Shown in pieces: positions 3,384-34,815 of a stretch of DNA of 36,347 nt. The stretch spans positions 1 through 36,347 of the forward strand of contig CAMDGG010000011.1 in assembly GCA_945898045.1 (NCBI GenBank), read 5' to 3'. The notes below the pieces were generated by a model. That model saw nothing but the letters and a program-made list of their open reading frames with translations. It was not told where the DNA came from and ran no database searches. The first letter of the stretch is position 1. Each line of letters opens with the position of its first letter. Origin of the DNA: a bacterium UBP8_UBA817 (GTDB lineage Bacteria; Margulisbacteria; Marinamargulisbacteria; SXXA01; SICP01). The translations under genes and the position numbers were made by a program.

Positions 3384-4163
3384 ATGTATCCGTCTTCGTA
3401 TGATCCAAGCTTGTTAGTATATGTTGATAGAAATGATGCTCGTAATTTATTGACTGTTTCTGGGCAACTCCCTTTTTTTGGAGGGGATTTATGGACTGCC
3501 TATGAACTATCTTGGTTAAATCTAAAGGGTAAACCTTGTGTTGCGATTGCTGAATTTCTTTTTTCATACGATACGCCGTATTTAATTGAGTCTAAATCTT
3601 TTAAATTGTACTTGAATTCATTGAACGAATGTAAGTTTGCGTCTTCGAATGAATTTTTGGATGTAGTTCAAAGCGATTTGAGTCGTGCTTGTGGGGGGGC
3701 TGTTCAGGTTCATCTTTTTTTCCCTGGAGATGAAAGTGTATCTGTTGTTCATCATTTGGATGGAATTTCATTGGATAATTTGGATATTTCAACAGATGTG
3801 TATGACCCTAATGTTGATTTTCTATCTATGTCTTTGCCGATTGTTTCTGAAACTTTATATACAGATCTATTTAAGAGTAAGTGTCCTATGACTGGGCAGC
3901 CTGACTGGGCTACTGTCCAAGTGCGGTATGTTGGACCTCAAATTGATAGAAAGGGTCTGCTCAAATATTTTATTTCGTATCGTTCTCATGGTGCATTTCA
4001 TGAAAATTGTGTTGAGCAGATATTTATGGATATTCTGACGCGATGTCGTCCAGAGAAACTTACGGTGTATGCTCGATTTACGCGTCGAGGTGGGTTGGAT
4101 ATTAATCCCTTTCGTTCTAATTTTGAGCCTTCACTTAAGAGTGTGTGGTTGGTGCGTCAGTAG
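3384..4163 (+). CDS. queF: NADPH-dependent 7-cyano-7-deazaguanine reductase, bimodular type II
   Basis: Reduces the nitrile preQ0 to the amine preQ1, a step of queuosine tRNA modification. The 259-residue protein is the long bimodular form known from E. coli, about 280 residues there. It has the QueF motif ESKSFKLYLNS (69-79), the catalytic cysteine in CPMTGQPDW (C167, with D174 as expected proton donor), and the conserved tail YARFTRRGGLDINPFRSN. I chose the ATG at 3384 because AAGGA at 3374-3378 is five bases upstream; the ATG at 3378 overlaps that site. No other queuosine gene is nearby. The last 29 bases overlap the convergent rnhC. Confidence 0.94.
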   Translation: MYPSSYDPSLLVYVDRNDARNLLTVSGQLPFFGGDLWTAYELSWLNLKGKPCVAIAEFLFSYDTPYLIESKSFKLYLNSLNECKFASSNEFLDVVQSDLSRACGGAVQVHLFFPGDESVSVVHHLDGISLDNLDISTDVYDPNVDFLSMSLPIVSETLYTDLFKSKCPMTGQPDWATVQVRYVGPQIDRKGLLKYFISYRSHGAFHENCVEQIFMDILTRCRPEKLTVYARFTRRGGLDINPFRSNFEPSLKSVWLVRQ

Positions 4164-23349: not shown

Positions 23350-23435
23350 TAATAGAGAAGATAGCAGATTTTGTTTTTGCTTGAAATTTTTTTTTCTTCT
23401 AAACCGATAATTAAAAAAACATATTGGAGATTTTT

Positions 23436-24737
23436 GTGAAAAAAATTCTTGCTCAAACACCGGTTCAAATATCACAGGGGATTGCTCTGTTATTAGTGGA
23501 AAAAATACAATCTGGTACGTTATCGTTTTCCGAACAATTTACTTTATTGGATGGAATCAAACATTCTTTGGAACCTAAAGTTATTGAAACTGTAATAAGA
23601 AAACTGGCTAATGAAGGGGCCGATAAAGCTTTGTATGCAATTTTGAGCTATGTCACGAATAATAAATTGGAATTTGATATCAATAGTAAATCCAGTGCTC
23701 TGAAAACAGCGTATGATTTAGCGAAAGAGAAAGGGCACTTAAGTGTTATTGGCGCGTTAACTTGTTTTGGGGTGACTACTCCTGATGGGGGAGAATATGG
23801 TCATTCTGCTACATCAATTGCCAGATATCCTGCGATTTTAGAAGTATATCATCATCTTTCTATTCGTGTTGATTTTACCAAAATTACTCTTATTGGACCT
23901 GGAATGTTGTGGCTTTCTCGCCCTTCTGATTTGAAGGTAGTTGAGGGGTATGTCTCTCCGATTATTACTAGATTCTTTGCAAATCAAGCAATTAAAGATT
24001 TTGAAGAATTAAAGAGTCCTAAAGAAGCCGTTTTGACTTGGTCCGATGTATTGCCTTTTTATTTTTCTATTTTTCCTAAGGCGGAGCTGATTGTAGTGGA
24101 TCGCCCCGATTTGATTGATAGGGCGCTTCATTCGACTATGCTGACTCATTCGGAAATGTATGGGGATATGCTGAATTTTTTCTTGCATTCTTTAATGGAT
24201 GAGTCTTCCGGAGAGGTTATGACACGTTTTGTGGATTGGCATAAACAGGGTAATGATTTTTCACGCGATTCTGTAGGGATGTTTCCAAAAGATTTGTTTG
24301 ACAATCTTATAGAATTCAAACCAGATAAATTTGGACAGCTACCCCAGAGTTTTGCGGCACTCCCGGTTAAGTCTACAGACTGTAATTTAATTGTCGCCCT
24401 TAATGTACTGCAATATCCTGCTCTTAGATGCCGATATGAATCTCAAGATTATCAGTATGATCTAGATAAAATTTTACTATCTTTGTTTCACAGCATGGGG
24501 AATTCGGGAAAAGATGTTCTGATTGTTACGAAAGATAGTCTATCTCCTTATATGGAACCAGGGGGGCTACTTTTTTCTGTGATTAAAAAGGGCATTGTTA
24601 GTCTGGAAGAAATTCCTGATGGTTCTAAGGGAAATTATGAAAAATTAATTGTACTAAAACTCAATTCTCCTAAGGCTTGTTCTCATCTTTTTTCGGAATT
24701 TTTTAAACTTTATCCAGACCAGACTCGTCGTAAATAA
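23436..24737 (+). CDS. Unrecognised protein: helical repeats plus methyltransferase-like fold
   Basis: I do not recognise this 433-residue protein as a named family. Residues 1-135 are helical with an ankyrin-like pair (SALKTAYDLAKEKGHLSVIG, 87-106). From about 148 the order of strands suggests a Rossmann-fold class I methyltransferase: ITLIGPG (150-156) as motif I, LIVVDRP (218-224) ending in an Asp as motif II, NLIVALNVLQY (317-327) as the strand-4 motif, and VLIVTKDS (361-368) as strand 5. Motif I lacks the usual acidic DxGxG form, so activity is uncertain. GTG 23436 is chosen for GGAGA at 23426-23430; an in-frame TTG at 23424 is an alternative. It is divergent from gshA. Confidence 0.7.
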   Translation: MKKILAQTPVQISQGIALLLVEKIQSGTLSFSEQFTLLDGIKHSLEPKVIETVIRKLANEGADKALYAILSYVTNNKLEFDINSKSSALKTAYDLAKEKGHLSVIGALTCFGVTTPDGGEYGHSATSIARYPAILEVYHHLSIRVDFTKITLIGPGMLWLSRPSDLKVVEGYVSPIITRFFANQAIKDFEELKSPKEAVLTWSDVLPFYFSIFPKAELIVVDRPDLIDRALHSTMLTHSEMYGDMLNFFLHSLMDESSGEVMTRFVDWHKQGNDFSRDSVGMFPKDLFDNLIEFKPDKFGQLPQSFAALPVKSTDCNLIVALNVLQYPALRCRYESQDYQYDLDKILLSLFHSMGNSGKDVLIVTKDSLSPYMEPGGLLFSVIKKGIVSLEEIPDGSKGNYEKLIVLKLNSPKACSHLFSEFFKLYPDQTRRK

Positions 24738-33300: not shown

Positions 33301-33317
33301 AATCACCCTATTTGTTA

Positions 33318-33333
33318 CATAATATATATTATG
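33318..33333. repeat. 16-bp perfect palindrome upstream of the cupin gene
   Basis: CATAATATATATTATG is its own reverse complement and lies 47 bases before the cupin ATG. It could be an operator or a cruciform-prone AT sequence. It is not followed by a T run, so it is not a normal terminator. No clean -35/-10 pair is seen next to it. Confidence 0.4.
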
Positions 33334-33380
33334 CGACGTAAAGTGGGGGGTCTTATTTTTGAAAAATGGAGGAACTACCA

Positions 33381-33728
33381 ATGTCATTAGAATCGAGAGA
33401 AACGCCCTGGGGACGTTGGGAAGTTTTGTTGGAAGCCAATGATTGTAAAGTCAAACGTGTGACTGTGAAGCCCGGGCATCGTTTGAGTTATCAAACGCAT
33501 CAATTTAGACAAGAAGTTTGGACTATTATTTCGGGGAAGCCGTATGTAATTCTGGATGATGTTAGATCTGAGTATGGGCCTCATGATGTGATTCGTATTC
33601 CATTGGGCGCTAAACATCGTATTGGTAATGAAGGCGCCCAAGATGTGGTGATTATTGAGGTCCAGATGGGTTCTTATTTCGGTGAAGACGATATTATGCG
33701 CCTAGAAGACGATTATTTAAGGACTTAA
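33381..33728 (+). CDS. Type II phosphomannose-isomerase-like cupin
   Basis: The 115-residue single cupin matches the C-terminal isomerase domain of ManC/AlgA-type proteins: PWGRWEVL at the start, LSYQTHQFRQEVWTIISG (metal-binding His and Glu), IPLGAKHRIGN, IEVQMGSYFGEDDIMRLEDDY at the end (split as IEVQMGSYFGEDD and IMRLEDDYLR). It probably interconverts mannose-6-phosphate and fructose-6-phosphate for surface sugars. ATG 33381 follows GGAGGA at 33368-33373; an ATG at 33366 overlaps that site. Its last 24 bases are repeated at 34274-34297, see the direct-repeat entries. Confidence 0.88.
   Translation: MSLESRETPWGRWEVLLEANDCKVKRVTVKPGHRLSYQTHQFRQEVWTIISGKPYVILDDVRSEYGPHDVIRIPLGAKHRIGNEGAQDVVIIEVQMGSYFGEDDIMRLEDDYLRT
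33705..33728 (+). repeat. Direct repeat copy 1: 3' end of the cupin gene
   Basis: GAAGACGATTATTT at 33705-33718 followed by AAGGACTTAA. It encodes EDDYLRT and the stop codon. It matches copy 2 at 34274-34297 at 21 of 24 positions, with the first 14 identical. The flanks on either side do not match. Confidence 0.8.
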
Positions 33729-33767
33729 CAAATCAGTATCTTTTTCTACAAAACAGTATGCTAAATT

Positions 33768-34151
33768 TTATGTTTGCCTCTCTTTAAAAAAATCAATGAT
33801 TCTGAGCATGAGTGTAAGATCCAATTTCATGGCAAGTGCTGCATTTTTTCCTGCTTCAGCAATACAAACCTCTTTACTTAAGTTTATTTCTTGACTCGTG
33901 TGAATATGGTCACTATAAAATATCGCTAACTCTTGAAATGGTTTTGATTCTTTTGGATTCGCTTTTGCGTTCTCTAAAAGTTTATTTAGTTTTTGCATTT
34001 TTATTAAGTTTGGTTCTTTTGGTTGTATACCGCATTTAAAATGCCCACCATAAGTTTTGTTCCAATATATGTTGTTCAGTTCGTGTAATCTACATGTAAG
34101 TAAAGTGGGTGTAGGTGTGGTATTTGATATTCCTAAAATTTTACATAGCAT
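33768..34151 (-). CDS. Hypothetical protein within the inserted segment
   Basis: An open frame of 127 codons with no recognised family. The first 50 residues contain three Cys and two His (LTCRLHELNN, GGHFKCGIQPKEP). The rest is predicted helical: KMQKLNKLLENAKANPKE, then SKPFQELAIFYSDHIH and a final MRIIDFF-like helix. No Shine-Dalgarno or promoter-like -10 precedes ATG 34151; a shorter start at an internal Met near residue 52 is possible. It fills most of the 33729-34273 segment bracketed by the direct repeats. If not a gene, this stretch is otherwise empty. Confidence 0.4.
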   Translation of the reverse strand: MLCKILGISNTTPTPTLLTCRLHELNNIYWNKTYGGHFKCGIQPKEPNLIKMQKLNKLLENAKANPKESKPFQELAIFYSDHIHTSQEINLSKEVCIAEAGKNAALAMKLDLTLMLRIIDFFKERQT

Positions 34152-34273
34152 TAGGGGGCTGCCTTTTTTAAGTGGTTAAGTATTTTATCTCTATCTCATA
34201 GAGTTATCGGTTTTTTTTTTAGTAAAATTTCATTTTTTTGAAATGGAGGCTTTGAGTGTAGGGTTTTAACGTG
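34152..34273. other. Non-coding right part of the inserted segment
   Basis: AT-rich DNA with a run of ten T at 34211-34220 and a weak hairpin ATTTCA-TTTTTT-TGAAAT at 34227-34244. I see no gene and no terminal inverted repeat. The segment ends at the second copy of the cupin 3' end. Confidence 0.4.
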
Positions 34274-34297
34274 GAAGACGATTATTTGAGGGCGTAA
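34274..34297 (+). repeat. Direct repeat copy 2: orphan cupin 3' end, overlapping pth
   Basis: GAAGACGATTATTT at 34274-34287 followed by GAGGGCGTAA. Read on the plus strand it encodes EDDYLRA and a stop, the conserved C-terminus of type II phosphomannose isomerases, but with no cupin gene in front. Its right 16 bases are also the 3' end of pth on the other strand. Confidence 0.75.
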
Positions 34298-34815
34298 AGG
34301 GTTTCTATCGTTGTGAGTGCTAAATCTTGAATAGACGGCAGCTCTTTCTGTTCTGTTTTTGAAAAATTGCTGAGAACGAAGTCTGAGATGGTTTGATTGT
34401 CTGATCTGGGGCCGATGCCGATGCGAAGTCTTGGGAAGTCTTGGGTGCCGAGGAGTTGGATGATGGACTTCATGCCGTTGTGTGTTCCTCCACTCCCCTT
34501 TTCTCTGTATCGTACTGTGTTGAAGGGAATATCAAAATCATCGTAAACGATAAGGACGTCTTGTGTGGGTATTTTGTAATAGGTTGCTGCTGCTACGACG
34601 GCTTCACCTGAGAGATTCATAAAAGTTTGGGGGAAGATGAGGTAGAGTTTCTGGGTGCCGATTTGGCCTTGATAGAGTAGGGACTTGAATTTTTTTCCTA
34701 GGGGAGAGAAGCCGTGTTTTTTTATAAGGGCCTCCCCTACTATAAAGCCTGCGTTGTGCCTCGTGAGTTTATAGGATTCGCCTGGATTTCCTAGACAACA
34801 AATGAGTTTGGGCAT
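34282..34815 (-). CDS. pth: Peptidyl-tRNA hydrolase
   Basis: Releases peptides from prematurely dropped peptidyl-tRNA. The 177-residue protein has CLGNPGESYKLTRHNAGF (about 6-23, with the catalytic His in RHNAG and the conserved Asn), then FMNLSGEAV, IVYDDFDIP (catalytic Asp), and GGTHNGMKSI. The ATG overlaps the der stop by one base (TAATG), so both are coupled. Its C-terminal codons lie in the repeated cupin tail, which suggests pth and the cupin gene once overlapped tail to tail. Confidence 0.96.
   Translation of the reverse strand: MPKLICCLGNPGESYKLTRHNAGFIVGEALIKKHGFSPLGKKFKSLLYQGQIGTQKLYLIFPQTFMNLSGEAVVAAATYYKIPTQDVLIVYDDFDIPFNTVRYREKGSGGTHNGMKSIIQLLGTQDFPRLRIGIGPRSDNQTISDFVLSNFSKTEQKELPSIQDLALTTIETLYALK

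What the first reader, a model, noticed from the sequence alone, without database searches (positions are those of the whole stretch)
33705..34297. Duplicated gene 3' end bracketing a probable insertion (att-like junctions)
The final 24 bases of the cupin gene (33705-33728) recur 569 bp downstream (34274-34297) with 21 of 24 identical, the first 14 exactly. The differences keep the coding sense: EDDYLRT-stop versus EDDYLRA-stop, the conserved C-terminus of type II phosphomannose isomerases. The downstream copy has no gene in front of it and overlaps the pth 3' end. Other convergent pairs here overlap at their stops, so the original layout was probably cupin and pth overlapping by 16 bases at copy 2. 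The DNA between is less G-skewed (my hand count at 33781-34140 is about 62 G to 53 C). Replacement of a gene's 3' end by a near-identical copy is how many site-specific elements integrate, but no integrase is present, so this may be a remnant or a very small non-autonomous element.
Basis: partly seen in the sequence, partly recalled or inferred. Interest (0 to 1): 0.72.

Follow-up and report, generated by a model that had tools for sequence, protein, structure and literature searches.

The report
Effector-like gene inserted between two genes
In an uncultured Margulisbacterium a 545-base piece of DNA has been inserted exactly where two genes overlapped, leaving both intact, and it carries one gene of a previously undescribed set of host-protein-like genes that share a flagellar-type promoter and a short N-terminal tag.

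Summary
In detail: 33705-33728 and 34274-34297 match 21/24 (14 exact), and shuffles do not reach this. The predicted empty site exists. In the only congeneric genome (Margulisiibacteriota MAG, Baikal), cupin runs straight into pth; its single tail equals copy 2 (24/24). Four other genomes of the class also have convergent cupin/pth with no insert, so the insert is derived. The site-specific-element reading is not supported: no second copy of the insert or of the tail in the genome, no recombinase gene in the insert, and related genes at other sites show other junctions. What was not foreseen is the cargo. The insert holds one minus-strand gene (127 aa) behind GAAATTT-N14-CCGATA, a sigma28-like promoter found 5-21 times per genome in this order (controls 0-2). 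In this genus and family most such genes start with a short K-[IVL]-[IVL]-[AS] tag followed by mostly unrelated bodies, including protein kinases, RasGEFs, ankyrins and a ubiquitin hydrolase. The genome carries a flagellar-type export cluster ending in a divergent FliA-like sigma gene. I read the insert as a single-gene gain from a fast-turning, putatively secreted effector repertoire, captured with a ~24-bp target duplication. Secretion, expression and the insertion mechanism are inferred.

The parts
33381..33728 (+). cupin / type II mannose-6-phosphate isomerase C-terminal-like gene, left flank of the insert
   Evidence: Pfam PF01050 E 2e-27; orthologue in G001
33705..33728 (+). copy 1 of the gene end (first 14 bp = exact core); now the functional cupin tail, 3/24 differences from the empty site
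33729..34273 (.). inserted DNA, 545 bp, GC 31.6%, absent from the congeneric genome's site and found nowhere else in its own genome apart from the promoter stretch
33768..34151 (-). ORF127, cargo gene; N-terminus MLCKILGIS carries the K-[IVL]-[IVL]-[ASG] tag; no homologue found
34205..34231 (-). sigma28-like promoter GAAATTTTACTAAAAAAAAAACCGATA, 53 nt upstream of the ORF127 start
34274..34297 (+). copy 2 of the gene end, identical to the empty site of G001 (24/24); overlaps the pth 3' end by 16 bp
34282..34815 (-). pth, peptidyl-tRNA hydrolase; its stop codon lies in the old cupin tail
   Evidence: Pfam PF01195 E 5e-60
23383..23409 (+). second copy of the promoter motif in the window
23436..24737 (+). 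second tagged regulon gene in the window (VKKILAQTPVQIS..), conserved in G001 (64% identity)

Best explanation
A 545-bp segment carrying one gene with its own promoter was inserted into the 16-bp overlap of the convergent cupin and pth genes; 24 bp of gene end now stands on both sides, so both flanking genes kept their ends. The cargo belongs to an order-wide group of genes read from a sigma28-type promoter whose products, in this genus and family, mostly carry a short N-terminal tag and include eukaryote-like domains. I take it to be a putative secreted effector. Insertion and the derived state are shown. Regulon membership is shown at the level of sequence. Export by the flagellar-type apparatus is inferred. 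The most likely route of entry is capture of the fragment at a staggered break: fill-in would duplicate the overlap, and copy 1, freed from its overlap with pth, would then drift by 3 bases. That route is inferred and only moderately likely (about 0.5 given an insertion).
For: Empty site in G001 with the tail identical to copy 2. Convergent cupin/pth without insert in G021, G009, G011 and G016, with gaps I read as about 3, 14, 21 and 101 bp. Promoter motif GAAATTT-N11-16-HCGATA: 21/15/18/16/14/5 hits in G000-G005 against 1/0/2/1/0/0 for the reversed pattern. In G000 16 of 18 motif-linked ORFs carry the tag, against 1 of 83 in a larger control set, Fisher p 1.6e-15. Bodies: Pkinase, RasGEF, ankyrin, UCH, ARM/HEAT, mostly unrelated to one another. 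FliM/FliN/FliP/FlhB/FlhA cluster ending in a FliA-like sigma. Other regulon genes also differ in presence between G000 and G001.
Against: Only one congeneric genome; both are MAGs. G001's tail equalling copy 2 would also result if the insert were older and G001 lost it by recombination between the 14-bp repeats. Similarity between the copies ends exactly at the cupin stop codon, which a plain 24-bp duplication gives only by coincidence. ORF127 has no homologue and no confident fold (pLDDT 47), and its tag (KILG) ends in G rather than A/S. The tag rule was written after seeing part of the data, and in other control sets 5/70 (G000, ORFs of 120 aa or more), 3/19 (G001) and 5/20 (G002) control ORFs also matched.
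Confidence: 0.68

Rival explanations
1. A small non-autonomous element integrated site-specifically at the cupin 3' end by an integrase acting in trans: crossover within the 14-bp core, the element bringing a substitute tail (AAGGACTTAA) that restores the reading frame.
For: Exact core, gene-end replacement, restored coding sense, similarity ending at the stop codon, and copy 2 equal to the empty site.
Against: No recombinase in the insert, no other copy of the insert or of the 24-bp site in the genome, no exact match in viral contigs, and the ilvN/aroC insertion of a related gene lacks such repeats.
Confidence: 0.14
2. The insert entered before the two congeneric species split and was lost from the G001 lineage by recombination between the 14-bp repeats.
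For: G001 carries exactly the product such a deletion would leave; the copies differ by 3/24, comparable to the 10-20% divergence of the flanking genes.
Against: It needs two events instead of one; all compared outgroups with the gene pair lack the insert.
Confidence: 0.25
3. Tandem duplication of cupin, with the inserted gene between the copies, followed by deletion of the body of the second cupin copy, leaving only its tail.
For: A weak 15/18 similarity between the cupin leader and DNA upstream of copy 2 (family D1).
Against: That similarity is T-rich and a third place shows it at 78%; no cupin-body remnant is seen.
Confidence: 0.08
4. The 127-aa frame and its promoter are chance features of AT-rich spacer DNA.
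For: No homologue in relatives, phages, plasmids or viral contigs; no confident fold.
Against: Open-frame length reached in 9 of 3000 shuffles, promoter match with a spacer of 14, and the tag at the right place.
Confidence: 0.08

Closest known systems
Integrative elements that use the 3' ends of genes as attachment sites (from general knowledge)
   Same: Gene end replaced by a near-identical copy, both flanking genes intact, empty site in a relative
   Different: No integrase, no recurrence of the core site, single-gene cargo, and other junction types for related genes
Sigma28 (FliA/SigD) promoters, TAAA-N15-GCCGATAA (from general knowledge)
   Same: -10 CGATAA, an A-rich -35, nearly fixed spacing; a FliA-like sigma gene near flhA
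   Different: -35 is GAAATTT, the sigma is divergent and short (201 aa, well below the TIGR02479 cut-off), and no flagellin was seen among the motif-linked genes examined
Type III secretion effector repertoires, some co-regulated by shared promoter motifs (from general knowledge)
   Same: Scattered single genes, eukaryote-like domains, shared promoter, rapid turnover, an export apparatus of the type III family
   Different: A conserved short N-terminal tag, apparatus of flagellar rather than injectisome type, phylum without reported effector repertoires in the papers held

Membership tests
Gene-3'-end site-specific integrative element | Direct repeat of the target gene end flanking the element, target gene restored | tested here: met
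Gene-3'-end site-specific integrative element | Empty site in a relative | tested here: met
   outgroups
Gene-3'-end site-specific integrative element | Encoded integrase, or related elements sharing the site | tested here: not met
   only ORF127 in the insert, no Pfam match; no further copies
DNA transposon / insertion sequence | Transposase, terminal inverted repeats, multiple copies | tested here: not met
   no inverted repeats pairing the insert ends, no copies, no family match for ORF127
DNA transposon / insertion sequence | Target-site duplication | tested here: inconclusive
   24-bp imperfect duplication; could be a duplication or a substituted tail
Sigma28-type promoter regulon | -35/-10 motif with fixed spacing, enriched over control | tested here: met
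   spacer nearly always 13-14
Sigma28-type promoter regulon | FliA-family sigma factor in the genome | tested here: inconclusive
   FliA_WhiG is the best NCBIfam hit (E 7e-17) but at 61.9 bits, below the 189.6 cut-off
Sigma28-type promoter regulon | Transcription from the motif by that sigma | not testable with these tools
   needs RNA data or in vitro transcription
Type III-exported effector | Type III export apparatus in the genome | tested here: met
   FliP, FlhB, FlhA, FliM, FliN in G000; no FlhA-family hit in G001, a MAG 83% complete
Type III-exported effector | N-terminal export signal | tested here: inconclusive
   shared N-terminal tag in G000-G002, function untested; tag as defined found in only 1 of 27 motif-linked ORFs of G003-G005
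Type III-exported effector | Translocation into a host cell | not testable with these tools
   uncultured organism, host unknown

The most novel reading that the evidence does not exclude
Margulisbacteria of this order use a FliA-like sigma and a flagellar-type export apparatus to produce and deliver a large, fast-turning set of eukaryote-directed proteins addressed by a conserved N-terminal K-[IVL]-[IVL]-[AS] tag; promoter plus tag acts as a leader module joined to unrelated bodies, and the insert is one recently gained member.
Probability: 0.35. Interest if true: 0.82.

Novelty: new variant of a known kind. Interest (0 to 1): 0.6.

Why it matters
The insertion itself is an instructive case of a gene landing in an overlap of two genes, one of them pth (usually essential), without damage. 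The larger point is what it carries: it led to a promoter motif and N-terminal tag marking putative host-directed proteins in a phylum without cultured members. That gives a simple sequence rule for listing such candidates in Margulisbacteria and makes host association, and the reuse of a flagellar-type exporter, testable.

Tried and rejected
ORF127 homologues: none in 26 relatives, phages, plasmids or viral contigs. Pfam and PHROGs for ORF127: none. Rfam: only two sub-threshold matches, taken as chance. Exact copy-1 tail in viral contigs: none. The two further BLAST hits of the insert (C13, C21) first looked like more copies of the element but are only the promoter. Flanking repeats of 13 bp or more around other regulon loci: apart from the 84-bp kinase repeat only single 13-mers at three loci, no pattern. 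AlphaFold of ORF127 from one sequence: pLDDT 47, not used for a fold search. Literature on Margulisbacteria with type III secretion or effectors: nothing relevant in the papers held.

Full report
Check of the observation. The repeat is as described: 33705-33728 and 34274-34297 agree in 21 of 24 bases with the first 14 exact. A 2-kb stretch shuffled 3000 times never gave better than 20/24 for this query. The 24-bp site occurs nowhere else in the 1.24-Mb draft genome at up to three mismatches. The hand count 62 G to 53 C is right.

Empty site. Four other genomes of the class, from three other families (G021, G009, G011, G016), have convergent cupin and pth with gaps that I read from the coordinates as about 3, 14, 21 and 101 bp, no second tail and no 500-bp spacer. 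The insert is therefore derived. Also, pth in both congeners takes its stop codon from the cupin tail, so the overlap came first (inference). What cannot be decided is whether G000 gained the insert after the split, or the insert is older and G001 lost it through the 14-bp repeats.

The cargo. The insert has one long frame, 127 codons on the minus strand; the open stretch of 135 codons is reached in 9 of 3000 shuffles. It has no homologue in 26 relatives, phages, plasmids or viral contigs. A 40-base stretch upstream of it recurs at two other places in the genome. Reading these showed a common motif, GAAATTT-N13/14-[ACT]CGATA, in front of otherwise unrelated genes.

The regulon. Searched as GAAATTTN{11,16}HCGATA, the motif occurs 21, 15, 18, 16, 14 and 5 times in the six genomes of the order that were searched; the reversed pattern occurs 1, 0, 2, 1, 0 and 0 times. 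Spacers are nearly always 13 or 14. The layout resembles the sigma28 promoter (TAAA-N15-GCCGATAA, general knowledge). In G000 16 of 18 motif-linked ORFs start with a short tag, [KR]-[ILV]-[ILVM]-[ASG] within the first 20 residues (for example MKKIIS, MPLYKIIS, MNFKVIA, MLCKILG for ORF127); 1 of 83 control ORFs of 150 aa or more does, and 5 of 70 in a set of ORFs of 120 aa or more from the same loci. G001 and G002 show 7 of 12 and 8 of 12, with controls of 3/19 and 5/20; G003 to G005 only 1 of 27, though G003 has a related form (MNFKVASTP, MNFKITAVP). The tag rule was written after seeing examples, so the G000 figure is descriptive rather than a blind test.

Bodies. Pfam finds protein kinase domains (two tandem genes in G000, one in G004, a weak match in G003), RasGEF (two in G000), ankyrin repeats (G000, G001, G002), a ubiquitin carboxyl-terminal hydrolase and two terpene synthases (G002) and ARM/HEAT repeats (G003); most others match nothing. 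All-against-all comparison finds few related pairs: leader and promoter are shared, the bodies are not. Two tandem kinases in G000 share an exact 84-bp block that covers promoter, leader and tag codons.

Apparatus. G000 has FliM, FliN, FliP, FliR-like, FlhB and FlhA genes in one cluster, with a 201-aa sigma-like gene at its end whose best NCBIfam hit is FliA/WhiG, though below the cut-off; G002 has the same order. A weak hook/rod-like match lies about 12 kb beyond the cluster in G000. A link between this sigma, the motif and export of tagged proteins is plausible but inferred.

Turnover. Other regulon genes also differ between G000 and G001. A 371-aa tagged gene between ilvN and aroC is absent in G001, with junctions sharing about 4-5 bp; at the CvpA-like site G001 keeps the promoter region but lacks the ORF; G001 has room for one kinase where G000 has two; at two sites G001 has other genes. 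The junctions differ from site to site, so a common site-specific recombinase is unlikely, and the gene-end duplication is peculiar to cupin/pth among the sites examined.

Mechanism. I favour capture of a fragment at a staggered break with fill-in, followed by drift of copy 1 once it no longer overlapped pth; all three differences lie in the former overlap. An integrase acting in trans stays possible because the similarity stops exactly at the stop codon. Neither is shown.

Novelty. The papers held include none on type III secretion or effectors in this phylum beyond a screen mentioned for the Trichoplax symbiont Ruthmannia (PMC6784892). Most subscription papers are not held, so novelty is provisional.

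Noticed in passing
window 33311-33338: dif-like palindrome TGTCGCATAATATATATTATGTTA-type (minus strand) upstream of cupin, conserved in G001 and, near pth or cupin, in G003, G009, G013 and G020; GC skew does not change sign there in the window or along the 37.7-kb G001 contig.
   Followed up: partly
window 23383-24737: Second tagged regulon gene of the window with its promoter; 64% identical orthologue in G001.
   Followed up: partly
L105:2450-2533 and 3416-3499: Exact 84-bp repeat covering promoter, leader and tag codons of two tandem kinase genes.
   Followed up: partly
L164, L183: The promoter motif also precedes rpoD-like sigma genes in G002 and G003.
   Followed up: no
L107:608-620 and 2167-2179: GAAATTTATTAAG is both the start of the promoter motif and the end of a downstream rhodanese-like gene; may be chance.
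   Followed up: no
L150 and L154: Nearly identical ORF starts (98% over 63 aa) behind the motif near the ends of two G001 contigs, suggesting a repeated gene.
   Followed up: no
L071:3620-4246: A REP-associated-transposase-like ORF in G001 at the place where G000 has a tagged gene (judged by eye).
   Followed up: no
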